Shown piece by piece: positions 2,036 through 27,463 of a stretch of 64,000 bases of DNA. This DNA comes from Terebella lapidaria (taxonomy: Eukaryota > Annelida > Polychaeta > Terebellida > Terebellidae): positions 22,469,402-22,533,401 of the forward strand of contig OX424567.1 in NCBI GenBank assembly GCA_949152475.1, read 5' to 3'. The number at the start of each line of letters is the position of its first letter. Within the stretch, counting starts at the first letter, position 1. A program made the translations under genes and the position numbers. The notes beneath the pieces are model-generated. The model was given only the letters and a program-made list of their open reading frames with translations. It was not told where the DNA came from and made no database searches.

Positions 2036-2521
2036 TCAACAGGTTCTTCCACTGATCCAAGCTTGTGCAATGAATGACTGTTTCTTAGTGTTTTTTATTG
2101 CAGTCACTTTCCCTTTGCCCCACAATTGTGCAATGCTGTCACATCCTGTTAGTGCATGAAGACCAAGTAAGTCCGGCACGATGTTTTTGTGATTTTTCAC
2201 AGTTGCTCCGATATCCACCAATGGTCGTCCTGAATTTGTTGACTCCATCAGTAAACGGCATTGTAGTCGCAGTTTCATGAAATGATACACAAGGAGGATG
2301 AAAACATCTGTATCATCACAAATGACTTTTATCGTCTTGGCTCCAGTTTCAACAATAACAGCCAGATGGTGGATCATGATCACGTCTGCTTCTTCGTGGG
2401 TTGTTGTTAGGTCCATGCGATGTTGTTGTTTTCCATTGTGAACCTCTATGGGTGTTTGTTCTTGACCTGTCAGAACAAGTGCATGATTTTTTCTCTGTTG
2501 AGCCTGATATACACAAATCAA
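2036..2521 (-). pseudogene. PIN/FEN1-like nuclease domain segment
   Basis: The frame contains THEEADVIMIHHLA, then VICDDTDVFILLVYHF, then GLHALTGCDSIAQLWGKGK. The acidic pairs (EEAD, DDTD) and the GCD/GKGK helix resemble the metal-binding core of PIN/flap-endonuclease-like folds seen in expanded invertebrate families. It continues in the same frame from the upstream exon (2,528-3,225), and only a single TGA at about 2,525-2,527 interrupts it. Downstream the frame is lost near 2,036. The assignment rests on motif resemblance, and catalytic competence is not implied. Confidence 0.6.
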
Positions 2522-2527
2522 TTCTCA

Positions 2528-3225
2528 GCATATAAGGTCGATGAGCTGACTTTTGTTCTGGGTGACATTCAATACCACCTTCTGTGGTGGAAGTGGAGTC
2601 TGCATATTTAGCTTATGCTTTCTTGTTGCCTCTTGTCCTGTTCGTGTGGTTCTCGTCACTGATTTGATACTGAACTCATAATATCTGTTGAAAACCAGAT
2701 GAACATCAGATGAATCGAGTTTTCCTAAGACATACTCTACAAAACTGTTCACAAAATCTTGCACAGTTGCTCTGTTAGGCCAGTGGATGATCCAAAGAAC
2801 TGCACATCCATCAATGATGATGATATCAGGAGCAGGAACGATGCTTTGTGAGACTTCCACCTGGAGCATATTCTTTAGTGTAGACTTTTCTCTTGCTATT
2901 CTCATCTGTCCTTTATCATCAAACATAGAAGTGGGTACAGGTGCCAGTTCATACTGCATGATGTCAGCAACCTTGATGTCACGACTTTGCTGCAAACACA
3001 TTACTCTCGAGTAGATCAGATTTAGGTCACATATTTCTGATGATCCTACTTTCAGCACTTTTCTTGTCACAGCCATGGTGGTCACCTGCTTAGACAATAC
3101 TGATTGGAACCCAGTTGGCCAGCTTTCTTCGTACGCTTTCATCTGTTCATAACCGATCTCAACTGATTTGTGGGCATTGACTTCTCTTGGTCCGACTCTG
3201 CCAGTAGCGATATTTATGATGCTAC
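2528..3225 (-). pseudogene. Internal exon of the PIN/CXC gene
   Basis: The frame begins at a clear acceptor (TTACCATATCAG at 3,226 on the minus strand). The upstream exon ends at 3,383 with CAAG before GTATTATC. Splicing joins the frames in phase to give PNEQPQGSIINIATGR. The exon holds about 230 codons with conserved text such as IIIIDGCAVLWIIHWP. It ends at an in-frame TGA, after which the PIN-like segment continues in the same frame. Confidence 0.65.
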
Positions 3226-3382
3226 CTGATATGGTAAGAAAACAAACACTTAATATACAATATTCGGATATATAATGGTGTATATACATGAACATGATTG
3301 TGTCCAGATATCAAGGGACAATAATAGGCATGTGTACAATGAATATGTCAATACATTACTTCAAACAAATTTTTGATAATAC
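3226..3382 (-). other. Intron in the PIN/CXC pseudogene
   Basis: This 157-nt intron has donor AAG|GTATTATC and acceptor ATATCAG|GTAGC. Removing it restores one reading frame across the two flanking conserved segments. Its presence shows the locus is a decayed genomic copy, not a retrocopy. Confidence 0.65.
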
Positions 3383-4077
3383 CTTGTGGTTGTTCGTTTG
3401 GATCCAGTGGGTCAATGCACAGCTGTAGTTTGTCCCTGATTTTCTGCCGATCATCTGCATCAGATATGATACGAGCAGAACGTTCTTCTTTGTGCAATGT
3501 TACTTCTTCAACTGCGTTTCCATCTGCCATATCTGTGAGATCATGAACGATCTGACTGCAAGCATGCATGCTGTATACCCATTTCTTCAGCGATGATGGC
3601 TTCAAAGTTAGACCAATGATTCCATTTGGACCATGTCCATAGCGCATGAAAGTGGTTTCTATGTACATGTCAGACCACATTCCATTCCACAAGCCCTCTT
3701 GTGACGCATCACATGTTCCCCTGCTATGAACTTTTGAAGAATTTCGCCATCTAATTTCTCCATGGAGTAGAGGTAGTACAACCCGTACTGAGCATAATTG
3801 TAATGACCAGCTGCGAAGAAATATGGCATCATTTCTTTCAATGCCCAAAGATGCATTGGCCAGTCACCTTCTCATTCGGCACGGACGAAAGTCATCATGA
3901 GGAGAACTGGCTTCACAAGATTTTGAATCCAAAGCTGTGCTGTCATGCTGTCAGAGGCTTTCATATTGAGTGTGTTCATCAGGTCATCAAAGTTGTCTGT
4001 GTGCAAAAGGGTTGCATGTAATACCTCTTCTGTAACAATCCGCAGAGCTCTGAAGTTTTGTGGAAACTTCTTACCGT

Positions 4078-5574
4078 TCAGCATATGGGCAACACTACCA
4101 AATGCACATCTTCCAGACCACTTTCGGCCATCAAACTTCCAACACAGCCAATGAAACTCATCAGAGTGTGCATACCACCTAATCTGGGAATGAACTGAGT
4201 GAACCGATCAGGATATACCCAGGAGATGTTGACTGCGACCTTGTATAGTTGCTGGTCATTCGTGAAAACAGTCACGGATTGTCCGCACTCTCTTGTTAAA
4301 CGTTGTGCTTCGGTCATTGCTGTCAGCATAGTATCAGGGTCAACGGGGTCCATATCGATGAGAGGTGTGTAGATTGCCCTGGTTGCCGGTTGTGGTGATT
4401 GGCCTTCTTCTCTAAAGAGACTTGTATTGAAACCACCAAACTCAGGTGTGTTCTGCTTGGAGGTGACGTCTTTCAAGAATGCGAAATCAAGCTGATGTGC
4501 CCTTGTAATCTGAATTACTTGTTGTGCCAACAGTCGCAAAGGTAACACAACCCTTTTCGCCTCATTGACAGGCATCTCTGGTTTCTTTGGTCCCCTGTAT
4601 CTTTGCACCACAATATCTTCACATACAGGGGCTTTCATTTCGTCACGTGTCAGGCGCCTGATAGGTGGCTTCTTTTCTACATTGGATAATTTCTCATCAT
4701 CCTTTACTGTCAATAATACTGCCATTGAGTGGGTCGAAATCAACCCATTCTGAGATGAGATATTGGCATCGAAGTTGTCGGCAACGATCTGAACCAGTCC
4801 GTGGGTTTCATTTTTGTGTCCTCTAACGGAGGCTTGTGCAGCTGCTGCTCTTGCTGCAGAGGCCTTGAAGCATTTCAATTCATCATAGGAACAGGTGACA
4901 CGATAACTGTACAACTGTTGTACAAGGCTCTTTCGACTGACTAATACTGCCAGCGCTAATTGTAGTGTCGTTGGTTTATTGTACATGACATTTGTGATGA
5001 TGTTCCCAATGAGAGCTGCAGGAAGAGTACGGTGTAGCTTTTCTGACACCTTACAGAGCAACTTCTGAAGTGTCGGACTCACTTTATTCAGGGTATCTTC
5101 AAGGTTGATCTGTGTTTCAAAGCAGTTTCCTTTACTTGACAAAGCTTTAGATTCTGTTGCAATCTTCTTGGCAATTCTATCTACTGAAATTTCCTCACCG
5201 TCTTCTATGTCTAATGCAACTGCGTTGACCAGTCTGGCAGCTTCGCTCCGAAACAACAGCAAACTGCTGATGCCTATGCCTGATAGGATGACAATGTCAT
5301 TTCCAAAAATATCAGCAAGTCTGGAAAGTAGTGTCCGCCTGGAGTATAACTTCCCTCCATTATCTGTGTATATTTTGTGTACCTCCACTGAGTTGTGTAC
5401 ATGTACCATATCAGCTCTCATCAGTGATACCAGATTAGTCAATGCAGTGTCATCATCCGTGCCGACAGGATCAATATGTGCAGCAGCTGTGACAGATTTT
5501 GGTGACATGAATATTTTTCTGCAGTCATCGTGATATCTGGCTTCAGCGGCATTGAGATCGCTCACTGTTCCCAT
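4078..5574 (-). pseudogene. Main body of the zinc-finger/PIN/CXC gene
   Basis: This is the longest open stretch in the window on this gene (498 codons). It starts with MGTVSDLNAAEARYHDDC, whose YH-x2-C completes the N-terminal Cys/His module. It then runs as a mostly helical region with no motif I can assign, and near the end has an aromatic, family-conserved stretch (WVYPDRFTQFIPRLGGMH). The frame upstream (5,578-5,820) is the same frame, cut by one TGA at about 5,577-5,579. The duplicate at 13,146 has CGA at that codon. At its 3' end, near 4,110, a frameshift diverts the frame from the conserved continuation (FGSVAHMLNGKKF). Confidence 0.68.
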
Positions 5575-5577
5575 TAG

Positions 5578-6066
5578 TCATAATTTCACTTTATATGCTG
5601 TGTCTTCTTGACGATCATCACAGATATTCAGGATTGTTTGTTTGAAAGAACGGTGTTCACCTCGATGCAGAGTTTGACATTGAGAAACTTTACGCCATCG
5701 ACTTGGGTTTTTCTTATCAGCCTCCGTAATGCAAGCATCACCACAAAAAATGCAGTGTTCCTTGAAGTTGAACATCTCGCCCATAGACTGTCTATCGCTT
5801 GGTAGCAATTGCTTCTTCACATGTCTTTGATTTGTAATTGATACGCTTCAAATGACGTCTAATGTGTGTTTGAGACGTGTAGGTCGACACACAGTCTCTA
5901 TGGCATTTGATTTGAAGATTTTCATCCTGCTCCATAAGTTCCAACAGATAACATCTTTCCTGGCTATGCTTGATTGAATGATACTTTGAATTCGACTTGG
6001 CCCAGCAGTAACTAACGGCTTGTCATACTTATCTGCTGTACATGGTTTGAAGAAACATTCTTCCAT
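5578..6066 (-). pseudogene. N-terminal Cys/His zinc module, frameshifted
   Basis: The module is spread over three frames. These are CTADKYDKPLVTAGPSRIQS (5,966-6,066), then KCHRDCVSTYTSQTHIRRHL (about 5,850-5,915) in a second frame, then EHCIFCGDACITEADKKNP (about 5,700-5,780) in a third. The pattern C-x2-C, CHRDC and YHDDC is typical of the N terminus of this gene family. The same two frameshifts recur in all four copies in this window, so the unit was already broken before it was duplicated. Confidence 0.62.
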
Positions 6067-6109
6067 CTTTTCCCTCCAGCTCTACAATGTAATCAATTGT
6101 TATATGTCT

Positions 6110-6344
6110 TACGACATGTTGCTAATTTATGCCCAAAATATAATGCTAAAGGTCATGTGGGACGAATGTTACATTCATTGTAAAGGTGAAAATACATCAG
6201 CACTATGTTAACTTTGTATTGGATTTGGCCTACAAACATTTATTATACCATCGATAGCACCGATACGTGCTATTACTAATCATATTTTGAAATATTTCAA
6301 ATTTCGTACGCCACCGCCAATACGTTTCGCTGTTAATGCGCTGC
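6110..6344. other. AT-rich spacer, no gene seen
   Basis: This spacer lies between the zinc-module fragment and the minisatellite. It is present in all four copies and has no domain-bearing open frame. It includes TACCATCGATAGCACCGATACGTGC and CGTACGCCACCGCCAATACG in two adjacent segments. Confidence 0.45.
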
Positions 6345-7009
6345 AAAATATGGATTAGGGGAGGTGGGATAATAAAGTGCGCATATAATAAAATACAATA
6401 GGGGAGATAATAAAATACAATTTGATATACCGTATATATTATATTTTTACTGCCGCCTGCCTGTGTGTTTTACCTTTACATATAATGATGAATGAGGGAG
6501 AGGGGGGAGGGGGTGATAAATTACAATTTGATATACCATATCTGTATTTCTACTGCCGCGTGCACATGTGTTTTGCATATAATAATGACTGGGAGAGGAG
6601 GGGGTTGGGGGTTGTAACAAAGTATAATTTGATATATCGTACATTGTGTATTATTTCTAGTGCCGTGTGCCTGTATGGTTTACCATTCATATAATATTGG
6701 CGAAGGGGAGGGGGGGGGGGGAGGTAATAATTATTGAAGGTAAGTACAATTTGATATACTGAATCTATATATTTCTACTGCCGCGTGCACGTGTGTACTG
6801 ACACTGCCTATAATAATGACTGAGGGGGGAGGGGAGTAATAAAGTACATTTTGATATACCGTATCTACTGCCGACTGCCTGTGTGTTTTACCATTACATA
6901 TAATATTGACTGAGGGAGGGGGGAGTGGGGTGGGGGTGTGGGAACTAATAAAGTACAATTTGATATACCATATATATATTTTTCGACTGCCGCGTGCCTT
7001 TGTGTTTTA
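6345..7009 (+). repeat. G-rich minisatellite, about 100-125 bp unit
   Basis: Imperfect units repeat the order AATAAARTACAATTTGATAT, CTGCCGCGTGCCTGTGTG, TTTTACCATTACATATAAT, GACTGAGGGAGGGGGGAG. The TTTGATAT core recurs at about 6,421, 6,528, 6,628, 6,750, 6,850 and 6,958. Each unit carries clustered G runs that fit quadruplex-forming sequence on the plus strand. Short frames that repeat here are artefacts of the repeat. Confidence 0.85.
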
Positions 7010-8408
7010 CGATCATCACAGATATTCAGGATTGTTTGTTTGAAAGAACGGTGTTCACCTCGATGCAGAGTTTGACATTGAGAAACTTTACGCCATCGAC
7101 TTGGGTTTTTCTTATCAGCCTCCGTAATGCAAGCATCACCACAAAAAATGCAGTGTTCCTTGAAGTTGAACATCTCGCCCATAGACTGTCTATCGCTTGG
7201 TAGCAATTGCTTCTTCACATGTCTTTGATTTGTAATTGATACGCTTCAAATGACGTCTAATGTGTGTTTGAGACGTGTAGGTCGACACACAGTCTCTATG
7301 GCATTTGATTTGAAGATTTTCATCCTTCTCCATAAGTTCCAACAGATAACATCTTTCCTGGCTATGCTTGATTGAATGATACTTTGAATTCGACTTGGCC
7401 CGGCAGTAACTAATGGCTTGTCATACTTATCTGCTGTACATGGTTTGAAGAAACATTCTTCCATCTTTTCCCTCCAGCTCTACAATGTAATCAATTGTTA
7501 TATGTCTTACGACATGTTGCTAATTTATGCCCAAAATATAATGCTAAAGGTCATGTGGGACGAATGTTACATTCATTGTAAAGGTGAAAATACATCAGCA
7601 CTATGTTAACTCTGTATTGGATTTGGCCTACAAACATTTATTATACCATCGATAGCACCGATACGTGCTATTACTAATCATATTTTGAAATATTTCAAAT
7701 TTCGTACGCCACCGCCAATACGTTTCGCTGTTAATGCGCTGCAAAATATGGATTAGGGGAGGTGGGATAATAAAGTGCGCATATAATAAAATACAATAGG
7801 GGAGATAATAAAATACAATTTGATATACCGTATATATTATATTTTTACTGCCGCCTGCCTGTGTGTTTTACCTTTACATATAATGATGAATGAGGGAGAG
7901 GGGGGAGGGGGTGATAAATTACAATTTGATATACCATATCTGTATTTCTACTGCCGCGTGCACATGTGTTTTGCATATAATAATGACTGGGAGAGGAGGG
8001 GGTTGGGGGTTGTAACAAAGTATAATTTGATATATCGTACATTGTGTATTATTTCTAGTGCCGTGTGCCTGTATGGTTTACCATTCATATAATATTGGTG
8101 AAGGGGAGGGGGGGGGGGGGGGGGAGGTAATAATTATTGAAGGTAAGTACAATTTGATATACTGAATCTATATATTTCTACTGCCGCGTGCACGTGTGTT
8201 CTTGCACTGCCTATAATAATGACTGAGGGGGGAGGGGAGTAATAAAGTACATTTTGATATACCGTATCTACTGCCGACTGCCTGTGTGTTTTACCATTAC
8301 ATATAATATTGACTGAGGGAGGGGGGAGTGGGGTGGGGGTGTGGGAACTAATAAAGTACAATTTGATATACCATATATATATTTTTCGACTGCCGCGTGC
8401 CTTTGTGT
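7010..8408. repeat. 1.4-kb inner tandem unit, second
   Basis: This is a second copy of 5,610-7,009 at an offset of 1,398 bases. It includes the broken zinc module (7,010-7,464, minus) with the same frameshifts. It differs by isolated substitutions, for example CCTTCTCC against CCTGCTCC near 7,326, and CCCGGCAG against CCCAGCAG near 7,399. Confidence 0.85.
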
Positions 8409-8560
8409 TTTACCATTACATATAATATTGACTGAGGGAGGGGGAGTGGGGTAGGGTGTGGGAACTAATAAAGTACAGTTTGATATACTATATATATATA
8501 TATACATTTTTCGACTGCCGCGGGCCTTTGTGTTTTACCTCTACATATAATGACTGGGTG
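7743..8560 (+). repeat. G-rich minisatellite, second array
   Basis: This array has the same units as at 6,345-7,009, plus at least one extra unit. A (TA)n run lies near 8,490 and an uninterrupted G run near 8,105. After 8,560 a non-repetitive piece leads to the (GT)n at about 8,684-8,698. Confidence 0.8.
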
Positions 8561-8806
8561 AGGGGGATAACACTTCACTTTAGTACATACCTGCAGGGAA
8601 TTTCCTATCTTGAAGTATCCTGTGCATGTAGATGGGTTGCACCAAACAAGAAACACATGACATTTGATTGAAGAATAGCAAACATGTGTGTGTGTGTGTT
8701 TTGGAGAGTATAAAAAATGCACTGGCACAAGATAATTGTAAGAGTAACACATAACATAAAACAGCAATAAAAATTCAATGAGCGACATTGAACAAATTTT
8801 GTTGGA

Positions 8807-11120
8807 TTATTTAAGTTTGCTTCTGACTAAAAGTTCTTTAAGATTTTGATGCTTCTTGTAAGCTGTTGCTATTTTAATATCACCATCAGTATTTTTGTTG
8901 AGTTGTTTCATATGCTTTTTAACAATTTGGGCTGAAAGAGTACCTGTTTTTGAGAAGGGTACTATATACACCATGTCGAATTTATTTTTACTTTTGTTCA
9001 AAGGGTCATACTTTGTAAATTTTTGAACGTTGAGGCCATGAGGTTCGAAAGTGCCTAGAGTATCAATCCAACAATATTCCCTTTCAAGTCGCCATTGTTT
9101 GTTTAAAAGTTCATCACCAAGATCGGAAACCTGTTCAATTGGTAAAAGAGAAAAACATTCAATGGAAAATTCAGGTTTGCTGTGAAATTTAGATAGATGA
9201 CTGTATAATGCATTTTCCTCATTGCAGCTAGTTATTGCAGCACGGTGACGATTGTTTCTGAATTTGAGTGATTTACCGGTTTCACCTACATATTGTTTTT
9301 CGCAAAGCTTACAAGTGTATAGATAAATTATGTTTTCTGAGTTGCAATCCAAAGCTGAGTTGATTGAGTAGGTCTGTTCAAAAACTGATCCCGAGAAATT
9401 TTGACAATTTGGAACTAAATGACATGTCTGACATTGTCTAGAATTACAAGGTTTTGAGCCAGACGAGCTGGAAGTGGGCAATTGAAAATCAGCACCTAGT
9501 CTTTCCTCACTGTTCAAAATTCTCAATGTTTCATTCTTGATTTTGCGAAGCCAACGTTTTGAATAGTTACGTTTCGAAAGTGCCTTGAATAATATTTGAC
9601 AAGCTGATTCAACATCATCTGGATATGAGCAAATTTTGAAAAATGGAAAAACTTGGGACTTGATTAGTCCTTTATAAGTGTGTTTTGGATGAAAAGAGAG
9701 CTTATGCAACAACTGATGAGTATCCGTTGGCTTGAAGAAAACTTTTGCTTCTAATGTGTTTTCTTTGCTCCTGAACAAAGTAGTATCCAAAAAATTAACT
9801 GAATCAGTACTAATTTCAGCTTTGAAGTTGATTGATGCCCTATGAGAATTGAAAATTTCGAGAAACTGGTGAAATTTGGAAATGCCATGTGGCCAAATGA
9901 GGAAAATGTCATCTAAATACCTATAATAGCAATCTGGTTTGAATGGACACTTTTGTAAAGCTTGCTTTTCAAATTCAGCCATATAAATATCTGCATAATG
10001 AGGTGCATATTTCTGACCCATGGCTGTGCCTGAAACTTGTAGGAATGTCTTACCGTCAAATTCAAAGTCATTACATTTAAGTGAAATTTCCAATAATTCT
10101 ATTATACCTTTGAATAGTTCATTGTTTGCCAAAGTCGGGAATGCATTTTTAATTGCTTGGATACCTTCTTCATGATTTATATTAGTATACATACTTTCAA
10201 CATCTAAAGTGATTAGTAAAGAATTTGGATTTAGTTCAAGCCCTCTAACTTTATCTAAAAAGTCATACGTGTTTTTTTATATATGACGGATGCTTATTTG
10301 CTTGATCTTTTATATATGAATCAATATACATAGCTACTTTTTCAGATTCACTGCTGCAGTCCGAAACAATTGGGCGCCCTGGAGGCATTACATTTGGAAT
10401 TGGCCAGGAGTCTTTGGGTTTATGAATTTTAGGTAGCATATAAAATCTTCTTTGACGAGGGCGTTCTGGTGGTAAAAGAAATTGGAATACTTTTTCAGAA
10501 AGGCATCCAGAATTGCGTAATCCTTTTAAAATTTTTGTTATTTTTGCTGAATTTTCTAGGTAAAGAGGAGTGTCAATTTCTCTGTAATGAGCTGGATTGT
10601 ATAATTGACGAAAGCCTTCATTAATATAATTTTGCCTATCCATAATTACGACTGCACTACCTTTATCTGCTTTTTTAACTACCAAGTCTACGTTATTTTG
10701 TAAATTCTTTATAGTTTTATATTCCATTTTCGTTAGGTTTTTGGTTTCTGGTTGAATTTTCAAGTTTTCAATTTCCTTAGATATTGCCGAAATGCAATCT
10801 AAAACGGGCTTGTCAATCATGGAACTCGGTGGAGTCCAGGTAGATTTTGGAGTGAATTTTGATCTATTTGTGAATGAATTTGGACGGTGAGAAAAATAAT
10901 TTTGAAGTTTGAGTTTTCTACTAAAATCTTGCACAGCTTGTTTAATTGGATCCAATGTTATTTTGGGTGTGGGAACAAATGTCAAACCACGATTTAGAAG
11001 AGCGATTTGTGTGTCCGAAAGTGTAAATTTGGAAAGGTTTACAACATTATTAGTCGTACTGGAGTTCGGTGGACTCTCAGAATGATTTAGTTTAAATGAC
11101 TGAGCCAGAATTTCAACATT
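8807..11120 (-). CDS. ORF2: reverse transcriptase + GIY-YIG endonuclease (one frameshift)
   Basis: The reverse transcriptase part starts at about 11,120 in a frame with no early AUG. It carries VVKKADKGSAVVIMD, FYMLPKIHKP and GRPIVSDCSSES (10,263-10,985). After one frameshift it continues with MYTNINHEEG, GTAMGQKYAPHYADIYMAEF and the catalytic YLDD of YRYLDDIFLIW (residues 92-95 of the 3' segment). A Cys-rich linker (CNSRQCQTCH) follows. The GIY-YIG nuclease comes next: IYLYTC and YVGETG at residues about 289-305, then FRNNRHRAAI and a later Glu and Asn (QWRLERE, HGLN). These are the Penelope-like RT and nuclease in their usual order. The break lies in a run of seven T (A on the coding strand) at about 10,271-10,277; one base fewer restores the frame. 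Product: element-encoded RT/endonuclease for target-primed insertion. Confidence 0.88.
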
Positions 11121-12811
11121 TCATTGGCCGTTTGTTCAGTCCAATGAATGTTATCTGTCTGTGTAGAAAACTTGATTGGATCCAACTGTTTAACAACTGT
11201 GAGATTGCTGAAACGTGAACTCATGTCATCCAAAGCCCTGTTAATCATATCCAAGTTGCGTTTCTCTACAGACGGAAGATTGTCTGAGTAGTTAATTTTT
11301 GGAATGAGAATTTTGGAGTGGGGGAAGATTCGGAAAGCACTGCTGAGCATATTCCTCAGTTCTGGAATTGAAGTAACACTTGGTTTGGAGCTTCGATTGT
11401 TCAGGCCTACACTTAAGATTAAGTTTTGGGGGGCATCAAATGATTTTTTACAGGCCGTGAACATCATTCTTAGATGGTTGAACAAAGCTCCAGGATAAGA
11501 CACAACTTGGATATCACTGACAGGGGATTTGGTGATGCGAGAAAGGTTAGAAGAGCCGAGGATGACAGTGGAGGAGGTTAGTTTAGGAAGGGCCCAAAGA
11601 GTTTTGGGTCCTCTGATAGTGGAAGGAGAGACATGGAAAGAGGTGTTAGGAGAGTTTTTAGGAGAGACAAAGCGAGTGCGTTTGCCTTTGGGTAGAGAGG
11701 AGGGTGAGAGTTCAGGAGAAGAAGGAGAGCGCGGACGCCGTTTGGGCGTGGCACTAAGGCGGTTATCAGGAGAAGAGCGAGAGAGAGGTGGCCAATCATC
11801 AGATGATGATAGACAAGGAGGGTTAGAGAGGGTATCAAGGAGTTGGAAGCGGTTAGAAGTGGACACAGAGGGAGGGGTGTTATTTGAAGATGGAGGTGAA
11901 GAGCGAGAGGGTTTAGGATTGTTAGTAGGAGAGTTGGCACGTTTTAGGTCCATTAGGAGGCGGCCAAAGAAGTTAGAGCCTTGACCATGACGGTTAACAC
12001 CCCAGTGGCTGTCAGGAACTGGATGGACAATGTGACACCCTTCAGGAAGACCCATCAGAGTGTCACGGAACAATTTGCAAGAATTAAACTTAACTTGAAG
12101 AAGTTGACGCATGATTCCATTTTTACTTTTATGCCAGAATGGGGACAGGCTAGGAATTTCACTAGCCAAACGTTTGGCCACTCCTGCATGGGGAGCCCTG
12201 AGGATCCGATTGGCTAGGTGTTGACAGTCATGGTACCGGGCTTTGTGATACTGATAGATGTGCTCAAGGCTAGGGAATCTCATACCACGATAGGATATAT
12301 TACATGGGAAGAAATTACTAAGTGGGTGTTTGTGACCTTTTACCTCGCAAGTCTGAGGTTTTGATTGAGAGTTAGAATTTGGAATAGGGGAATTTGGAAG
12401 AGTAGAGGTTTTGAATTTCTGGATGGTGGAAGCCTGAAGTTTTTTGCCGAAATGAGATTTAGCCTGCTGAATGACGAGAGCTACCGAATTTGCAATGTCC
12501 GAATCTGATAAACCTAAAGAGGAAATGTGGGCCAAAAGGTTTTGAATTGAGCTCTCATAGTGTTCCACCAAATGTTTGGTCACGTTTTGTACCCAATTTT
12601 GATTAATTTTGGAGATTTTTTGTTTGATTAGGGGACCAGAACAAGCAGGTTTAATGAAGTCATCCAGGTGTTGTTGTTTTTTACTGAAAGCCCTGGTGAC
12701 TTGGCCTTGAGACTGCTGGAGCATTAGTGACAGGTGGTGAAAACATTGAAGAAGAGTGTAAAAAGAACGGAAGTGAGGAGGTTTAGAAAGAGCCATGATA
12801 CGTTTCAGCAA
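11087..12811 (-). CDS. ORF1: NADAR (YbiA-like) + SGNH-hydrolase-like protein
   Basis: An intact 574-residue frame. Residues 1-150 are helical and basic with no motif I recognise. Residues about 155-292 match the NADAR/YbiA-like fold (N-glycosidase-type enzymes acting on ADP-ribose or riboflavin-pathway substrates). Supporting text is HPLSNFFPC, then FPSLEHIYQYHKARYH, MRQLLQVKFNSCKLFRD, and DSHWGV..GQGSNFFGRLLM. Residues 295-405 are a Ser/Pro-rich linker. Residues 413-574 look like an SGNH esterase fold: block I GSSNLSRI (Ser420/421), block III GLNN (469-472) and block V DNIHW (Asp553, His556). SGNH/esterase domains are known in CR1-type LINE ORF1s; I know of no established NADAR-SGNH pair in a Penelope-like element. 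An internal start at MALSKPPHF (residue 6) is also possible. Its role in the element is unknown. Confidence 0.82.
   Translation of the reverse strand: MLKRIMALSKPPHFRSFYTLLQCFHHLSLMLQQSQGQVTRAFSKKQQHLDDFIKPACSGPLIKQKISKINQNWVQNVTKHLVEHYESSIQNLLAHISSLGLSDSDIANSVALVIQQAKSHFGKKLQASTIQKFKTSTLPNSPIPNSNSQSKPQTCEVKGHKHPLSNFFPCNISYRGMRFPSLEHIYQYHKARYHDCQHLANRILRAPHAGVAKRLASEIPSLSPFWHKSKNGIMRQLLQVKFNSCKLFRDTLMGLPEGCHIVHPVPDSHWGVNRHGQGSNFFGRLLMDLKRANSPTNNPKPSRSSPPSSNNTPPSVSTSNRFQLLDTLSNPPCLSSSDDWPPLSRSSPDNRLSATPKRRPRSPSSPELSPSSLPKGKRTRFVSPKNSPNTSFHVSPSTIRGPKTLWALPKLTSSTVILGSSNLSRITKSPVSDIQVVSYPGALFNHLRMMFTACKKSFDAPQNLILSVGLNNRSSKPSVTSIPELRNMLSSAFRIFPHSKILIPKINYSDNLPSVEKRNLDMINRALDDMSSRFSNLTVVKQLDPIKFSTQTDNIHWTEQTANEMLKFWLSHLN
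11090..11096 (-). promoter_or_regulatory. Candidate -1 ribosomal frameshift heptamer TTTAAAC
   Basis: On the coding strand the last sense codons of ORF1 are CAT TTA AAC followed by TAA. They form T TTA AAC in the zero frame, a perfect X XXY YYZ slippery heptamer. A -1 slip reads TTT AAA then CTA AAT, which is the open frame of ORF2 and has no early AUG of its own. A short stem (GAGT with ACTC) lies about 13 nt downstream; I cannot predict a strong pseudoknot by eye. Confidence 0.65.
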
Positions 12812-12826
12812 TTAATTTTGAAAGTA

Positions 12827-13636
12827 TTAAAACCAGAACGTGTTTGATTTGGATGATAAAACCATGTCATTTCCAAAAATATCAGCAAGTCTGGAAAGTA
12901 GTGTCCGCCTGGAGTATAACTTCCCTCCATTATCTGTGTATATTTTGTGTACCTCCACTGAGTTGTGTACATGTACCATATCAGCTCTCATCAGTGATAC
13001 CAGATTAGTCAATGCAGTGTCATCATCCGTGCCGACAGGATCAATATGTGCAGCAGCTCTGACAGATTTTGGTGACATGAATATTTTTCTGCAGTCATCG
13101 TGATATCTGGCTTCAGTGGCATTGAGATCGCTCACTGTTCCCATTAGTCGTAATTTCACTTTATATGCTGTGTCTTCTTGACGATCATCACAGATATTCA
13201 GGATTGTTTGTTTGAAAGAACGGTGTTCACCTCGATGCAGAGTTTGACATTGAGAAACTTTACGCCATCGACTTGGGTTTTTCTTATCAGCCTCCGTAAT
13301 GCAAGCATCACCACAAAAAATGCAGTGTTCCTTGAAGTTGAACATCTCGCCCATAGACTGTCTATCGCTTGGTAGCAATTGCTTCTTCACATGTCTTTGA
13401 TTTGTAATTGATACGCTTCAAATGACGTCTAATGTGTGTTTGAGACGTGTAGGTCGACACACAGTCTCTATGGCATTTGATTTGAAGATTTTCATCCTGC
13501 TCCATAAGTTCCAACAGATAACATCTTTCCTGGCTATGCTTGATTGAATGATACTTTGAATTCGACTTGGCCCAGCAGTAACTAACGGCTTGTCATACTT
13601 ATCTGCTGTACATGGTTTGAAGAAACATTCTTCCAT
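12827..13636 (-). pseudogene. Second copy of the zinc-module gene 5' end
   Basis: This duplicates 5,294-6,066. From 13,390 to 12,864 one frame reads from the C-x2-C module through YHDDC into the body. Here the codon that is TGA in copy 1 is CGA (13,146-13,148), giving KLRLMGTVSDL. The frame is cut where the retroelement begins at 12,863, adding a few foreign residues. Upstream frameshifts near 13,380 and 13,520 are the same as in copy 1. Confidence 0.7.
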
Positions 13637-13914
13637 CTTTTCCCTCCAGCTCTACAATGTAATCAATTGTTATATGTCTTACGACATGTTGCTAATTTAT
13701 GCCCAAAATATAATGCTAAAGGTCATGTGGGACGAATGTTACATTCATTGTAAAGGTGAAAATACATCAGCACTATGTTAACTTTGTATTGGATTTGGCC
13801 TACAAACATTTATTATACCATCGATAGCACCGATACGTGCTATTACTAATCATATTTTGAAATATTTCAAATTTCGTACGCCACCGCCAATACGTTTCGC
13901 TGTTAATGCGCTGC

Positions 13915-14584
13915 AAAATATGGATTAGGGGAGGTGGGATAATAAAGTGCGCATATAATAAAATACAATAGGGGAGATAATAAAATACAATTTGATATAC
14001 CGTATATATTATATTTTTACTGCCGCCTGCCTGTGTGTTTTACCTTTACATATAATGATGAATGAGGGAGAGGGGGGAGGGGGTGATAAATTACAATTTG
14101 ATATACCATATCTGTATTTCTACTGCCGCGTGCACATGTGTTTTGCATATAATAATGACTGGGAGAGGAGGGGGTTGGGGGTTGTAACAAAGTATAATTT
14201 GATATATCGTACATTGTGTATTATTTCTAGTGCCGTGTGCCTGTATGGTTTACCATTCATATAATATTGGCGAAGGGGAGGGGGGGGGGGGGGGGAGGTA
14301 ATAATTATTGAAGGTAAGTACAATTTGATATACTGAATCTATATATTTCTACTGCCGCGTGCACGTGTGTACTGACACTGCCTATAATAATGACTGAGGG
14401 GGGAGGGGAGTAATAAAGTACATTTTGATATACCGTATCTACTGCCGACTGCCTGTGTGTTTTACCATTACATATAATATTGACTGAGGGAGGGGGGAGT
14501 GGGGTGGGGGTGTGGGAACTAATAAAGTACAATTTGATATACCATATATATATTTTTCGACTGCCGCGTGCCTTTGTGTTTTAC
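13915..14584 (+). repeat. G-rich minisatellite, third array
   Basis: Same units and order as 6,345-7,009, with a longer uninterrupted G run near 14,280. It is followed directly by another zinc-module fragment (14,584-15,038). Confidence 0.8.
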
Positions 14585-15038
14585 GATCATCACAGATATT
14601 CAGGATTGTTTGTTTGAAAGAACGGTGTTCACCTCGATGCAGAGTTTGACATTGAGAAACTTTACGCCATCGACTTGGGTTTTTCTTATCAGCCTCCGTA
14701 ATGCAAGCATCACCACAAAAAATGCAGTGTTCCTTGAAGTTGAACATCTCGCCCATAGACTGTCTATCGCTTGGTAGCAATTGCTTCTTCACATGTCTTT
14801 GATTTGTAATTGATACGCTTCAAATGACGTCTAATGTGTGTTTGAGACGTGTAGGTCGACACACAGTCTCTATGGCATTTGATTTGAAGATTTTCATCCT
14901 GCTCCATAAGTTCCAACAGATAACATCTTTCCTGGCTATGCTTGATTGAATGATACTTTGAATTCGACTTGGCCCGGCAGTAACTAATGGCTTGTCATAC
15001 TTATCTGCTGTACATGGTTTGAAGAAACATTCTTCCAT
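14568..15038 (-). pseudogene. Fourth copy of the zinc-module fragment
   Basis: This copy carries the same C-x2-C text (EHCIFCGDACITEADKKNP) and the same internal frameshifts as the other three copies. Its frame runs out into the minisatellite on the 3' side, so it cannot encode the rest of the protein. Confidence 0.7.
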
Positions 15039-15316
15039 CTTTTCCCTCCAGCTCTACAATGTAATCAATTGTTATATGTCTTACGACATGTTGCTAATTT
15101 ATGCCCAAAATATAATGCTAAAGGTCATGTGGGACGAATGTTACATTCATTGTAAAGGTGAAAATACATCAGCACTATGTTAACTCTGTATTGGATTTGG
15201 CCTACAAACATTTATTATACCATCGATAGCACCGATACGTGCTATTACTAATCATATTTTGAAATATTTCAAATTTCGTACGCCACCGCCAATACGTTTC
15301 GCTGTTAATGCGCTGC

Positions 15317-16135
15317 AAAATATGGATTAGGGGAGGTGGGATAATAAAGTGCGCATATAATAAAATACAATAGGGGAGATAATAAAATACAATTTGATAT
15401 ACCGTATATATTATATTTTTACTGCCGCCTGCCTGTGTGTTTTACCTTTACATATAATGATGAATGAGGGAGAGGGGGGAGGGGGTGATAAATTACAATT
15501 TGATATACCATATCTGTATTTCTACTGCCGCGTGCACATGTGTTTTGCATATAATAATGACTGGGAGAGGAGGGGGTTGGGGGTTGTAACAAAGTATAAT
15601 TTGATATATCGTACATTGTGTATTATTTCTAGTGCCGTGTGCCTGTATGGTTTACCATTCATATAATATTGGTGAAGGGGAGGGGGGGGGGGGGGGGAGG
15701 TAATAATTATTGAAGGTAAGTACAATTTGATATACTGAATCTATATATTTCTACTGCCGCGTGCACGTGTGTTCTTGCACTGCCTATAATAATGACTGAG
15801 GGGGGAGGGGAGTAATAAAGTACATTTTGATATACCGTATCTACTGCCGACTGCCTGTGTGTTTTACCATTACATATAATATTGACTGAGGGAGGGGGGA
15901 GTGGGGTGGGGGTGTGGGAACTAATAAAGTACAATTTGATATACCATATATATATTTTTCGACTGCCGCGTGCCTTTGTGTTTTACCATTACATATAATA
16001 TTGACTGAGGGAGGGGGAGTGGGGTAGGGTGTGGGAACTAATAAAGTACAGTTTGATATACTATATATATATATATACATTTTTCGACTGCCGCGGGCCT
16101 TTGTGTTTTACCTCTACATATAATGACTGGGTGAG
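15317..16135 (+). repeat. G-rich minisatellite, fourth array
   Basis: Copy of the 7,743-8,560 array, including the (TA)n run near 16,063 and the closing segment before the (GT)n run. Confidence 0.8.
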
Positions 16136-16272
16136 GGGGATAACACTTCACTTTAGTACATACCTGCAGGGAATTTCCTATCTTGAAGTATCCTGTGCAT
16201 GTAGATGGGTTGCACCAAACAAGAAACACATGACATTTGATTGAAGAATAGCAAACATGTGTGTGTGTGTGT

Positions 16273-16844
16273 TTGTATGTATAAACTAATCTAATTTAGA
16301 AAATACAATAAATGTTACCATGGCAACTATCTCATTACACAATTTTGACCTTAACCATATTTGACCTTCAAACCTCGAAATGGACACCACAAACATTTGA
16401 ATACATGCACACAATAAATGATAGTCGTTTACCGCGTTGGTAATGCCTCGTTCACTTATTCATATTGTTGTTAATTAGCATATTCATGACATTAATTTGC
16501 ATAAACTATTGTTTAGGTCATTAATATAAGTTATTTTCAAATAAGTGATTGTATCACTGTGATACCCAGTGGAAAGAAAAGCATTGTACGATCATGGCAT
16601 TCAATGTCACATTGCATTGCCACATTACAACGCATTGTAACGCATTACAACGCAGTGATTTGTAGAGGAAGAAATCAGTCCTAATAATTTGTATATTCAT
16701 TAAGCTGATTTTAATATTTAAATATCGATTCAGTTTGTAATTAATATGTTGCCCCCAAACTTTCATTATGCTCCATGATTCTATTTACATTACTATTGCA
16801 TTACTGTACATTAGGATATCAAAGAAATCGGGATTTTTTTTGCA
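16273..16844. other. Intergenic; X-box palindrome and short repeats
   Basis: No gene seen. GTTACCATGGCAAC at 16,314-16,327 fits an RFX-type X-box. Near 16,610-16,665 the motif ACAACGCATT recurs in a short cluster. Confidence 0.4.
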
Positions 16845-17145
16845 ATTAGTGTTCCTTATTTGCATATTCATGAAACTAATTTAAATAATAGACAATCGAA
16901 AATGGTTTTATCAGAATCCTTGACCATGAAAACATAGGCATAGACACCTCAACCAACATTGTAGAACTAATACATTTCGAGATATTAACAAAATCATAAA
17001 TTGCAATAATGGCTGACACTAATTTGCATATTCATGTGATTATGCAAAATGCTCAAAGGTGCCAGAGTGGCATCAACCGGAATATATGTCGGAAGGGTCT
17101 ATTAATTACAAATATGCAAAAAAAAATCGTGCGGACCACATTGCA
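16845..17145 (-). repeat. Right arm of the diverged inverted repeat
   Basis: Reverse-complement partner of 640-960 (see there). It ends about 80 bp before the 3' end of the first lectin gene. Confidence 0.6.
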
Positions 17146-17224
17146 ACGTTACACCAAAAAAGACGGTTTGACACCTGGACTACATGGATACGTCTGAGGC
17201 ACAGGTGCACAAAACATTACATGT

Positions 17225-18713
17225 TTATGGCGCAAGTACTATCTCCCACCATTGATCCGTGCGGTCTCTGTTGGTTGCCAAACATGTATACTGCCCGATG
17301 TTCAGACCTCTCTGATTCGTAGCGCGTCCAGAAACGTCAACGCACTTCCCCGTGGCAATATTCTTGATGCTGAAGTGACAATGGACGTCGTACACAAACA
17401 CCCACTTGCAGTTATCGTTATCAGCGCAGCTATCTAGCTGGACGTTTGTACCATCGACATTCATACACTTCCCTGATGCCTTGCTGAGCAGATATCCATC
17501 ATGGTCCATCAGCCATTCTTGGTCGGTGTTTGTTACATTCAGCTCACACGTGTCACTGTTGATGTTTGCCCCATCGCTCCAAGTTGTTTCCTCGACTTTG
17601 ACACAAAAACCTGTGTCTCGATTTCTGATGAAGAACCCTGTGTAAGCAAACACATGTGTGATATACACACATACATAACATGACAAAATGACATTGGACA
17701 CAAAAGCTCACAGACACAATGTTTCACACATCGTGATTTGTTAATGGATGCATGTGATTGTGGTGAATATAGTTAGGCTCTATCGAAGTTCTGGTGATTT
17801 AGTATCACGTAAGTTACCAAGGGTCATACTATTGCTGATACAAACCATTCAGAAATGTGGATGCTGCATCAGGACACACACATGTGTATTGTTGACCAGC
17901 TGGACAACAGGTGGAGCCACCAGCACATGGGTTCGGCTGACACGGGTTTTCTGCACAACAGCAGCACATTTTTATCATTGGAATAAATAAATACAGTGTA
18001 TGTAACAACTTTCTGAATAATTTCAAAGGGATTTTAGAATATGTCATTGTTTTCATTCGTACATTACTTGCGGTCTTCCACACACTGGGCATAAAAAGTG
18101 CCATCCTTAGTCATTTTAGCACAGTAGACGAACGACGAACCATAGTTTTTAAACAATGAAGAACGTTTTCAACCATAATCAACTGTTCTCAACAGAACAT
18201 TAGATTGTGGTTTTATCAGCACAATCAGAGAAATAGTTTTTCAGGTCATTTTTTAACCCAGATCAGACGAGTTGAAAAGCACTGCGGTTTGTTCCACAGC
18301 GTAGGGAATTATATTTATCAAGTCCAGCGTTTGTACTAATGATGGGTGTACAAACCTTTCAACACATACAACATGTTGTCAAGGGGATCAAAGCTGTCTG
18401 TGTAACAGACTGAAGTCCCGTTTCTGCTACTGTCGACATCTGGGACTTCATCAAACAGTTGACAACTGTATGAGAAGCCAGCTGGGTGTACACTGGCGGC
18501 CAGACATCTCCCTGTCTGGCACCCCTCTTCGTTCCTAATAAGGCATAGCTTCTTGCACATTGCGGCACTTTTTACCGTCTGTTCGTGGACGATCCTACCA
18601 TTCAAGTCCAAGCTCTTGTAAGGAAAACCCTCGAACAAACATGTTGTATGACATCTGGTAAACGTGAGCGCAATTGGTGTAAGAATTGTCAGGAATTTGT
18701 GAAGATCCATCAC
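17225..18713 (-). CDS. Secreted PAN-EGF-ricin-type lectin, paralogue 1 (3 exons)
   Basis: Exons on the minus strand: 18,356-18,713, 17,846-17,950 and 17,225-17,637; both introns are GT-AG. They join in phase (LKENPCQPNPC and LNGFFIRNRD) to give 291 residues. Exon 1 has a hydrophobic signal-like start (FLTILTPIALTFT) and a PAN/apple-like Cys-rich domain (AMCKKLCLIRNEEGCQTGRC). Exon 2 is an EGF-like module (NPCQPNPCAGGSTCCPAGQQ) without an obvious sixth Cys. Exon 3 is a ricin-type beta-trefoil of one repeat set with QxW-type positions (TDQEW, NCKWVF, TDQWW). The predicted product is an extracellular carbohydrate-binding protein. This fold is a common lectin fold, and nothing here suggests a toxin enzyme chain. 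A tandem paralogue lies at 24.7-26.0 kb in the same orientation. Confidence 0.85.
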
Positions 18714-19630
18714 TTTGAGGTCATATCCATCCTCATACGCAGTTCAAAAATCTGATGAGAAAGACGTATCGAGTATATTTGTGGTCCCGACACTATCCCA
18801 ATACATCCAAGCCAAATATTGACGTAGGAAATGTATTAGGCATGCTGAATGTTTTTTTCAAATAATTGACGGGATGTGGTCTGTGGTATGGATTAATCAG
18901 TGGGATTAATCCATGTCAAGCATTTCAGACGTTCCGGTGACGTTCCAGTGAATTTGTTCATTTATCAGTTATCCAAGTGTTATCTAAGTTCTTCGTTACA
19001 TACAGCCAATGCCATTTGATGCCCACAATCCCCACACAGCCCAAAACTACCCCATTTATCATAAATTATATGCTTATTTGCACTGTTCATAGTGCTGGCA
19101 TGCGCACTCATCGTCCAGGTCATGTGGCAGTGTGGATTTCTGCGGATGATCTCATCACGCTGTTTCCATCACCTGCATACATGTATCACAGAAGACTACA
19201 TCTCATTTTGGGATAACTTCTTGAGCGCTGCACAACCAGAGACAGAAAATATATCTTTATTGTTATAAGCTGGAGTCACGTTCAGCATAAACCCGATGAA
19301 ATAAGCTACAGAGGAGAGATTATTTGTTTGGCTAGCAAAACTATAATCCGCCGTTAAAAATTATCAACCAATATTACACAATTCTCATACATACACAATG
19401 TATACCCGCTTGTAGGATGGGATGTATTGACTAGTATTGTGGGAAAGAAAGCCAGGTGACTTTCCGAGAGATTGATATCGGGCAACTTCGGAAGACAAAA
19501 TCTGCCAGTCGATGGTCAACAAGATAAGTTGGTGTATCATAGCAACAGTGTTCCCTACACACTATGCACATTTCTTGGCATTGGCGTTTTCCAGGTTCCG
19601 TAATGATATAATGATCGAGAAGTGCGTTTG
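18714..19630. other. Intergenic, no gene seen
   Basis: I see no supportable exon or known repeat here. A short palindromic stretch (GATTAATC/GGGATTAATCC) lies near 18,893-18,912. Confidence 0.4.
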
Positions 19631-24696: not shown

Positions 24697-25969
24697 CTAA
24701 GACGCAGGTATTATCTCCCACCATTGATCTGTGAAAGTTTTGTTGGTTGGGTCACACGTCCACTGACCGACGTTCACTCCTCCCTGACTCCCCGCATTTC
24801 CAGCAACGTCCACGCACTTCCCCGTGACAGCATTCTCCATTCTGAAGTGACAGTGGGCGTCATAGACAAACTTCCATTCGTGGTCGTCACCATCAGCGCA
24901 GCTGAATATGCGAATATTCCTCCCATCGGCAGGATTTCTCCGTCCATCTACATCCATACATTTCCCAGACGCATTGCTGCGAAGCTTTCCATCAGAGTCC
25001 ATGAGCCATACTTGGTCGGTGTTTGTGACATTCAGCTCACACGTATCACTGTTGATGTTTGCCCCATCGCTGACTCCCGGTGTCCCAGCTACGTTGATGC
25101 AGAACCAGGTGTCCCGATTTCTGATGAAGAATCCTTCATGAACAAACAAATAGAAACACACTCAAAACGTGAAGGCACATGCCTGTCGAATTTGCAATAA
25201 TAAATATGTTGCTGTAACGAACCATTTGGGAATGTGGACGCTACATCGGGGCACACACATATGTATTGTTGACAAGCCGGATAACAAGTTGAGCCACCGG
25301 CACAAGGATTAGGCTGACATGGAATCTCTATTAATGGCAAAAAACATTTTGAAAACTCAATATCAATATTCTCATATGTATCATGTATAGCCCAGAGAAA
25401 ATGACATTTGACAATCGAAAAAGAAAACTGTTATTAGCACACAGACGCAAACTACATGTACATTCAAACTACACAACACAGCTTGAGTTAAAAAATGGAG
25501 ATACGCCAAAGAGTTAAATGGGAGACCAGGTATGAACATCATCCCAGTGATATACCACTCAAGAGCTGCAAAGAACACGAACATTGCACAAAGTTTAATA
25601 AGCAAATTTGTGTACGTACACACCTTTCAGCACATACATCACACTATCCCGGGAACCTAAGCTGTCCATGTCACTGCCAGTCTGTGTCCCTACGCCTGGG
25701 ACTTCATCAAACAGCTGGCATCTGTATGAAAATCCAACTGGGTGAACATTAGCGGCCACACACCTCCCTGTCTGGCACCCCTCCTCATTCATGAGAAGAC
25801 ATAGCTTCTTGCACATCGCCGCACTTTTTACCGTCTGTTCGTTAATGATTCTTGTGCCATCCATTGACAAGCCCTCATACGGAAAACCCTCGAAGCGACA
25901 TGTTGCATGGCAGCAGGTAGTAGCGAGCTCAGTGGCCATGAGGATCGTCAGGAATTTCTCAAGATTCAT
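24697..25969 (-). CDS. Secreted PAN-EGF-ricin-type lectin, paralogue 2 (3 exons)
   Basis: Exons on the minus strand: 25,624-25,969, 25,223-25,327 and 24,697-25,133. The introns are GT-AG with the same phases and the same 105-nt middle exon as paralogue 1, giving 295 residues. Exon 1 has a signal-like start (FLTILMATELATT) and a PAN/apple-like domain (AMCKKLCLLMNEEGCQTGRC). Exon 2 is EGF-like (IPCQPNPCAGGSTCYPAC). Exon 3 is a ricin-type trefoil segment with TDQVW, DHEWKF and TDQWW. The frames are intact, so it is probably functional and secreted. It arose by tandem duplication with 17,225-18,713. Confidence 0.86.
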
Positions 25970-25984
25970 CGCTATAAACTTAAG

Positions 25985-27463
25985 TAACCCATATGATTGA
26001 ACATTCAGAGCTGAAATAGAAAAAAAAAACAGTATCGTGAAATGACTCCGAATGACGACTTTAGAGCGTTCATACCGAAATTAATTGTCTCTCCGCATGG
26101 GAGACTTCTTAAACGCTCTCTGAGATTCCCATGTGGGGAATACTCTGCGACTGGGGGGAAAACCTGCTGTCGGAGAGAAAATACTTGAAACGTTTGTTTC
26201 ACAGTGTTGGACGTGAACAATTCAGTTAATCAATATAATCTGACGAATATTTCCCTCAAATGGAGCAAATTTCTCGTCACTATCGCCGATTTACTTAAAT
26301 ATTTTCATGTCAGTGTGATTTGAGAGTACACACTTCAACACGGTGTGCATTCAGTCAATTGGGTGTTAGATTCGTCCATATACTTTCGTGCCATCGCTCA
26401 CATCGCATGTTTATCCCGTATGTCAGTCACTAATTTTCCTTGTTTCCGTGCGGGAATATTAGCACATTTGTTTCACATGCATAAAATATCATATATGCAT
26501 TTATTTTCACTGTCCCACAATCAGCTACTTTACCGCTCACAGAGGGCTGAATGCAGAGAATCGAACGTGATATTGATGGTTGACATTGTGTAAAAGCCGG
26601 GAATGGGTTCCGAGTTCAACACCACCGGCTTCCAGGGTGATACTCCAGTGCCAAAAGAGTGGGCATATTCGATCAAAGAATACTATTCCTACGAACAAAC
26701 ATTCCTTTTACACATGTATTCGTCCTGCATGGACATCGTATATATGCACACGAAAATAAATCAGAGATTTGACAGTTCTTGAAAGGAACGCGTTATTGGC
26801 TTCGTATCCGGGGAGATCTGGTGCTCTGTAACAGGTATGATTCTTGGTGATTGATTAATTGACCCATAGAAAACTACCGCTGGTGCACTTCTCGCAGCTC
26901 TTCTACAAAATAGCGATGGGCGACTAGAACTCCAGCACTGAGGAAGTAGGATTAACTTAAATTATTAAAGGCCACTTCCTTGTTGAGGCGTACCTATTGA
27001 CGTTTATCACGCCCGCAACTTGGAGGCAATACGGTCATTTCTGTCTCGTCAATGATCTTCATTGTTTGGGCACGAGCGGTAAACTAAAATTGAAAATCTC
27101 CTTTGTGAAGTGAGTAGAACTCCAACTGAGTATCTAAATTGCCGGGGTTTCATTCATGTGTCATAGCATATGCACGCATTGTGTGAGGCGGAGTGAATGG
27201 TGCTCGTTGACATTATTCAGTGGACGATTATATATGTTCAGGATGATACACTAGTAGAAAATCTTTGTAAATAAGAGGGACATTCTATAGTTCCATATAC
27301 AGAGTCCCAAGACTTTGATGGTGATCATTTCCAATCATAAAACACATTCAAACCGTTCAGAACGTACTGAGCCGCTAATAGGCTAACAAGGAAAAAAATA
27401 ATGAACGATTCGTCCATTCAAATGAATATTTCGTCATAACTACGATCAATGAGAAATTGCTAT
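25985..27463. other. Upstream region of lectin 2; no other gene seen
   Basis: This contains the putative promoter region of the minus-strand lectin gene. I cannot assign a TATA box or start with confidence. The short frames at 26,005-26,220 (minus) and 26,345-26,593 (plus) have no recognisable domain. Confidence 0.35.

What the first reader, a model, noticed from the sequence alone, without database searches (positions are those of the whole stretch)
11087..12811. Penelope-like retroelement whose ORF1 is a NADAR-SGNH protein
Seen: one intact frame with a NADAR/YbiA-like domain (SNFFPC, SLEHIYQYHKA, SHWGV, GSNFFGRLLM) and an SGNH-type domain (GSSNL, GLNN, DNIHW), directly upstream of an RT plus GIY-YIG frame. 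Known: NADAR domains act on ADP-ribose-type N-glycosidic bonds and appear in ADP-ribosylation conflict systems; SGNH esterases occur in CR1-like LINE ORF1. Inference: a retroelement that carries an enzyme able to erase or process host ADP-ribosyl signals during insertion.
Basis: partly seen in the sequence, partly recalled or inferred. Interest (0 to 1): 0.9.

Follow-up and report, generated by a model that had tools for sequence, protein, structure and literature searches.

The report
Penelope retroelement carrying NADAR-esterase protein
A jumping gene of the Penelope kind, sitting in an animal-like genome, carries a first protein that fuses an ADP-ribose-processing enzyme domain (NADAR) to an esterase-like domain; the same fusion is found in related elements elsewhere, so it looks like a real, conserved piece of this element's machinery, although what the NADAR domain acts on is not yet known.

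The parts
8702..12860 (-). Penelope-like element insertion (about 4.16 kb), as bounded by the two flanking direct repeats
   Evidence: self-blastn repeat edges 5291-8701 / 12861-16274; edge sequences
11087..12796 (-). ORF1, 569 aa from first ATG (open frame reaches 12811)
12395..12796 (-). ORF1 residues 1-134, N-terminal helical domain shared by NADAR-bearing and NADAR-less ORF1s
   Evidence: alignments, AF2 model
11921..12361 (-). ORF1 residues 146-292, NADAR domain
11612..11920 (-). ORF1 residues 293-395, Ser/Pro-rich linker, mostly predicted disordered
   Evidence: pLDDT under 50 over 292-364 and 366-383
11090..11611 (-). ORF1 residues 396-569, SGNH (GDSL-esterase-like) domain with S416, G436, N466, D548, H551
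11087..11120 (-). 34-nt overlap of the ORF1 end with the ORF2 frame
   Evidence: overlap compatibility test
10263..11120 (-). ORF2 first piece (N-terminal part and first RT blocks), ends at a frame change
8807..10276 (-). ORF2 second piece: RT palm/thumb, Cys-rich linker, GIY-YIG endonuclease
   Evidence: Pfam RVT_1 and GIY-YIG; 929 homologues, 120 listed
9821..10228 (-). RVT_1 match
9056..9331 (-). GIY-YIG match
5291..8701 (.). 3.4-kb direct repeat copy 2 (downstream of the element on the minus strand); holds part of ORF T; more likely duplicated target DNA than a pseudo-LTR
12861..16274 (.). 3.4-kb direct repeat copy 1 (upstream of the element), 99.7% identical to copy 2

Best explanation
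It is a two-ORF Penelope-like element (PLE). ORF1 encodes a gag-like ribonucleoprotein protein: a helical N-terminal domain (assembly, inferred), a NADAR domain, a disordered linker and an SGNH domain that may bind lipid or act as a weak esterase (inferred from ZfL2-1). ORF2, in a frame overlapping the end of ORF1, encodes the telomerase-like RT and GIY-YIG nuclease that make the insertion. Most likely mechanism of the NADAR part: it sits in the element's RNP and removes ADP-ribose from guanine bases of the element's RNA or new cDNA, or from nearby nucleic acid, so that host ADP-ribosyltransferases cannot block reverse transcription. Shown here: domain anatomy, frame overlap, presence of the same architecture in relatives, invariant ligand-site residues. 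Inferred: RNP membership, catalysis, substrate, benefit.
Against: The acid needed in C7 NADAR is not an acid in 13 of 14 distinct PLE rows (P0015 has E one residue before the His). Whether H258 replaces it depends on the alignment: joint MAFFT and one of three HHalign runs put H on E, the other two and the hmmsearch alignments put it one residue off. Of nine phage NADARs aligned here 8 have Glu and one His in that column, so His is not general in phages. The R79 phosphate-binding site is variable, Ser in the window. Domain identity is no strong sign of selection: for P0002-P0008 NADAR is 55-59% identical to the window, but the linker, where aligned, is 48-55%. Eight ORF1s of the same family lack NADAR, so it is dispensable in some lineages. 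The window copy has a broken ORF2 and reads Leu where relatives start ORF2 with Met. No host transferase was linked to the element and the host is not identified. SGNH Ser and His are lost in P0009, P0010 and NADAR-less P0022.
Confidence: 0.4

Rival explanations
1. The NADAR domain has lost hydrolysis and works as an ADP-ribose or nucleotide-binding module, for instance tethering the RNP to ADP-ribosylated chromatin or repair sites, or simply as a structural part of the ORF1 particle.
For: Essential acid not kept as an acid in 13 of 14 distinct PLE rows while E178, K185, W221, W265 are invariant; SGNH of the same protein shows catalytic loss with the domain retained in P0009, P0010 and P0022.
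Against: His at this site is described for gp30.3-type phage NADARs (PMC11543638, PMC11125620, passages), and T4 phage NADAR is an active hydrolase (PMC11833690, passages); H258 is invariant in 15 of 15 rows.
Confidence: 0.3
2. The NADAR domain acts on free ADP-ribose derivatives or RNA-repair by-products made by host immune or repair enzymes rather than on nucleic-acid adducts.
For: Proposed for phage NADARs in PMC9503650 (passages); YbiA acts on riboflavin intermediates (stated in PMC11543638, passages).
Against: The domain is built into an ORF1 that by position and architecture should travel with the element's RNA; NADARs of invertebrate RNA viruses tend to be embedded in polyproteins with the RdRp and are argued there to target macromolecular ADP-ribosylation (PMC9503650, passages).
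Confidence: 0.2
3. ORF1 is not part of the Penelope element: a host NADAR-SGNH gene or another element lies next to the RT by chance.
For: No second copy in the window by self-blastn; the whole genome could not be searched; the linked contigs themselves were not seen.
Against: Overlapping frames compatible in relatives, contig-length linkage, one insertion bounded by the same repeat edges, known SGNH ORFs in PLEs (PMC5408684, PMC3905857, passages).
Confidence: 0.04
4. NADAR was gained twice (main clade, and P0011/P0012/P0015) rather than once with one or two losses.
For: On the N-terminus+SGNH tree the NADAR label needs two changes, forced by starred branches.
Against: The 14 PLE NADARs are one side of a branch against 14 other NADARs, support 94/97, not starred, and share H258. 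P0015, YbiA and two phage rows have long branches.
Confidence: 0.2

Closest known systems
SGNH/GDSL ORFs of PLEs (Neptune-like of fish and molluscs, bdelloid Athena/Terminons; PMC5408684, passages) and the Penelope esterase aligned in PMC3905857 (passages)
   Same: A PLE-type RT associated with an extra ORF holding an SGNH domain
   Different: No NADAR domain mentioned in the passages seen; bdelloid Athena is endonuclease-deficient
NADAR domains in retrotransposons: Ectocarpus Gypsy Pol and Crassostrea gigas Tx1 LINE ORF1 (PMC12477816, passages)
   Same: A YbiA-type NADAR captured by a retroelement, in ORF1 in the Tx1 case
   Different: Different retroelement classes; no SGNH fusion in the passages seen; a LINE-like ORF1 met here (P0023) keeps Glu where the PLEs have His in the MAFFT alignment and lies outside the PLE NADAR branch
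ORF1 esterase of CR1/L2 LINEs, ZfL2-1 (PDB 4c1b; PMC3905857, passages)
   Same: SGNH domain at the C-terminus of ORF1, profile hit 1.5e-7
   Different: Coiled coil before the esterase, no NADAR, LINE-type element
NADAR hydrolases YbiA, P. nicotianae NADAR (8bau), DarT1-linked C7 NADAR, phage gp30.3-type/T4 NADAR
   Different: E125/D171 acid absent in 13 of 14 distinct rows; fused inside a retroelement ORF1
NADARs inside polyproteins of invertebrate RNA viruses (PMC9503650, passages; nidovirus-like rows)
   Same: NADAR carried as a domain of a protein of a selfish RNA-using element
   Different: RdRp viruses, not retroelements

Membership tests
Penelope-like element (PLE) | Telomerase-like reverse transcriptase | tested here: met
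Penelope-like element (PLE) | C-terminal GIY-YIG endonuclease in the RT ORF | tested here: met
   GIY-YIG E 2e-4, 22 bits against cut-off 22.6; P0029 and P0026 0.0013 and 0.0018. Precomputed PF01541 is absent in the 18 closest rows and present in part of the other listed rows
Penelope-like element (PLE) | Tandem arrangement with pseudo-LTRs | tested here: inconclusive
   3.4-kb direct repeats flank the element, but a 499-aa frame (ORF T) runs through the end of copy 2 and breaks off just past copy 1, which points to target DNA; ORF T has no Pfam match and no relative in viral contigs
Penelope-like element (PLE) | Hammerhead ribozyme motif | tested here: inconclusive
   In 4000-18000 one Rfam match at E up to 5, a sub-threshold snoRNA; no hammerhead. 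The 5' end may be short
Neptune clade of PLEs | Placement on an RT tree with named PLE clades | not testable with these tools
   Homologues carry no clade names; clade not assigned
NADAR (PF08719) | Sequence profile above curated cut-off | tested here: met
   59.6 bits against 35.1; match at E up to 0.01 in 15 of 23 rows of A3
NADAR (PF08719) | YbiA/NADAR fold | tested here: met
NADAR hydrolase, YbiA subfamily | Catalytic Glu in the last strand (Asp in BC4488, His in phage gp30.3 type; PMC11125620, passages) | tested here: not met
   Val-His in the window; His invariant in 15 of 15 rows, Glu only in P0015, one residue before it. A His-type member is possible but alignment-dependent
NADAR hydrolase | Guanine-ADPr hydrolysis | not testable with these tools
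   needs an assay
SGNH hydrolase | Fold and Ser-Gly-Asn-His residues | tested here: met
CR1/L2-type ORF1 esterase | Sequence homology to the ZfL2-1 ORF1p esterase | tested here: met
   profile A3 against 4c1b 1.5e-7

The most novel reading that the evidence does not exclude
PLE ORF1 NADARs are an anti-defence enzyme of retroelements: a single ancient capture, with the catalytic Glu swapped for His as described for gp30.3-type phage NADARs, that strips guanine ADP-ribosylation written by host pierisin/CARP-1-type transferases from the element's RNA or cDNA. That would be a eukaryotic retroelement counterpart of NADAR antitoxins against DarT1, and imply that guanine ADP-ribosylation limits transposition in invertebrates.
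Probability: 0.2. Interest if true: 0.85.

Novelty: new variant of a known kind. Interest (0 to 1): 0.6.

Why it matters
It joins two separate observations (SGNH ORFs in PLEs and NADAR capture by Gypsy and Tx1 retrotransposons) in one protein, in a third retroelement class, with a family deep enough to test by biochemistry. Capture of the same uncommon ADP-ribose enzyme by three classes of retroelement and by invertebrate RNA viruses suggests that ADP-ribosylation is a recurrent obstacle to RNA-based selfish elements, which would make the question of what guanine ADP-ribosylation does in invertebrates directly testable.

Tried and rejected
Chance frame: rejected. Host gene beside the RT: rejected, see rivals. 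Pseudo-LTR reading of the 3.4-kb repeats: entertained first; disfavoured because ORF T runs through the end of copy 2 (5577-4078) and stops 34 bases past the end of copy 1. It is not excluded, since ORF T has no confirmed homologue; whether the duplication is biological or an assembly joining of two alleles is open. Hammerhead ribozyme: none by Rfam. Relatives of ORF1 (A2): 8 pattern matches in viral contigs and 42 in genome contigs, none confirmed; P0023 and ORF T: no pattern match in viral contigs. A profile search of ORF1 found no further PLE ORF1 and did not list P0009 and P0021, only the best 7989 candidates being scored. RT profile against PDB sequences: no hit, hence the fold search. 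A pierisin-like reading of the nearby ricin-B exons was looked at by eye: no transferase domain in the frames given to Pfam. The fold of the N-terminal domain alone was not searched. RT and ORF1 trees of linked elements: P0031 and P0072 lie in one RT group of 4 (100/100) and their ORF1s P0003 and P0008 pair with 94/94, but the A2 tree is weak; too few pairs for a co-inheritance test. Contig linkage is by equal length and source only; lengths are those of the longest contig of 90%-identity clusters, RT rows with two sources were coded by one of them, and only 120 of 929 RT hits were listed. P0001 was dropped from the trees as a near-copy of the window; P0023 was left out of A3. The label LINE for P0023 rests on recall of ORF1 motifs, not on a call.

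Full report
What is there. On the minus strand an open frame of 574 codons runs from 12811 to 11087, with its first ATG at 12796 (569 aa). Its product hits Pfam NADAR (PF08719, 6e-16) and, by sequence, the solved NADARs 2b3w and 8bau. The frame is far longer than composition explains: longest frames in 1000 mononucleotide shuffles average 106 and reach 241. Downstream on the same strand are two frames, 11120-10263 and 10276-8807; the second holds RVT_1 (3.8e-11) and GIY-YIG (2e-4, just under its curated cut-off). Aligned relatives cover both pieces as one protein, and P0026 is a 708-aa protein 98% identical to the second piece, so this copy has a frame change while relatives with one frame exist.

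Family. A search of 5.8 billion proteins gave 23 ORF1 homologues. Fourteen of the 23 have the same architecture with NADAR (P0001-P0013, P0015), eight have the same N-terminal and SGNH domains without NADAR (P0014, P0016-P0022), and one (P0023) is a LINE-like ORF1 with NADAR (LINE label from recall). A profile search, capped at 7989 candidates, added no PLE ORF1. For P0002-P0008 identity to the window is 55-59% for NADAR, 52-58% for the N-terminus (20% in P0008, whose N-terminus is divergent), 47-54% for SGNH and, where aligned, 48-55% for the linker, so identity alone does not single NADAR out.

Unit. ORF1's last codons lie inside the ORF2 frame by 34 nt. I tested for 23 ORF1 tails (window and P0001-P0022) against the 111 of 120 listed RT proteins that start with Met whether one DNA can encode both in overlapping frames: 22 pairs are compatible, all with six residues in the same frame and all in five RTs (P0030, P0033, P0071, P0072, P0074). 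The pairs are not independent: 20 of them combine one shared tail, found in five ORF1s, with four RTs. Permuted tails gave 0.06 on average, at most 2 in 100 rounds; internal six-residue pieces gave none in 100 rounds. In the window itself the position reads Leu where those relatives have the starting Met, so how ORF2 starts in this copy is not established. Two of these four pairs are also overlap-compatible (P0006/P0033, P0008/P0072), though not uniquely; the other two RTs are listed from a later start and could not be tested. The contigs themselves were not seen, so the linkage is strong but indirect.

History of the NADAR domain. On a tree of the N-terminus and SGNH domains of 22 ORF1s the NADAR label needs two changes. 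On a tree of 28 NADARs the 14 PLE domains (window, P0002-P0013, P0015) are one side of a branch (94/97, not starred), with the LINE-like, oomycete and two bacterial-type domains on the same side of a starred split from nine phage domains and YbiA; P0015, YbiA and two phage rows have long branches. One old gain with one or two losses, depending on the root, is favoured over two gains.

Active site. Relative to P. nicotianae NADAR (PMC11543638, section 12 read) the equivalents of E43, K50, W89 and W133 are invariant (15 of 15 rows) and D130 is kept in 13 of 15; R79 and R93 vary. The E125 acid, essential as D171 in C7, is not kept except in P0015; an invariant His (H258) is at that place in the joint MAFFT alignment and in one of three HHalign runs, and one residue off in the other two and. 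gp30.3-type phage NADARs are described with His there (PMC11543638, PMC11125620, passages), and T4 phage NADAR hydrolyses guanosine-ADPr RNA (PMC11833690, passages); but of the nine phage NADARs aligned here 8 have Glu and one (L004) His. The SGNH triad is intact in the window but Ser and His are lost in P0009 and P0010 and in NADAR-less P0022 (P0013 lost the Ser and is truncated).

Mechanism. ORF1 is best read as the element's gag-like RNP protein, by position and by analogy with SGNH ORF1s (PMC3905857, PMC5408684, passages). The most likely job of NADAR is to remove ADP-ribose from guanine bases on the element's nucleic acid, because NADARs were the only hydrolase family that did this on RNA (PMC11833690, passages) and because guanine-modifying transferases exist in invertebrates such as clams and butterflies (PMC11209040, passages). 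The bacterial NADARs tested on uracil adducts had no or negligible activity (PMC13036486, passages), so the base matters. In human cells the PARP-family protein ZAP restricts LINE-1, but its zinc-finger domain suffices (PMC4441479, passages). None of this is shown for PLEs. A binding-only role remains a serious rival.

Novelty. In the open-licence PMC library, searches for Penelope-like + NADAR (2 papers; one of them, PMC6679389, seen as a listing only), NADAR domain + retrotransposon (1 paper) and DUF1768 + retrotransposon (0 papers) found no NADAR in a PLE. PMC12477816 (passages) reports NADAR in Gypsy and Tx1 LINE elements. So this is a new variant of a known kind.

Noticed in passing
window 5291-8701 and 12861-16274: 99.7% identical 3.4-kb direct repeats flanking the element, each with 1.4-kb tandem units that contain a fragment of ORF T; origin (giant target duplication, older tandem duplication or joined alleles) unexplained.
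   Followed up: partly
window 2036-5577 (minus): ORF T and three further minus-strand frames without Pfam match, perhaps a multi-copy gene or another mobile element into which the PLE inserted.
   Followed up: partly
window 17225-18743 and 24697-26080 (minus): Two related stretches (74-79% identical pieces) with ricin-B lectin exons (Pfam in the first) and a PAN-like exon (0.0044, under the cut-off, in the second); an EGF-like Cys-rich stretch judged by eye.
   Followed up: partly
window 41309-41944 (plus): Frame with a Tc5 transposase DNA-binding domain (5e-5).
   Followed up: no
window 27505-28402 and 55318-56143: Tandem arrays of 21-bp units (two halves in opposite orientation) and of 22-23-bp, partly palindromic units.
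   Followed up: no
proteins P0009, P0010, P0022: SGNH catalytic Ser and His lost while the domain is kept, in both a NADAR-bearing and a NADAR-less lineage: SGNH catalysis looks dispensable in some of these ORF1s.
   Followed up: partly
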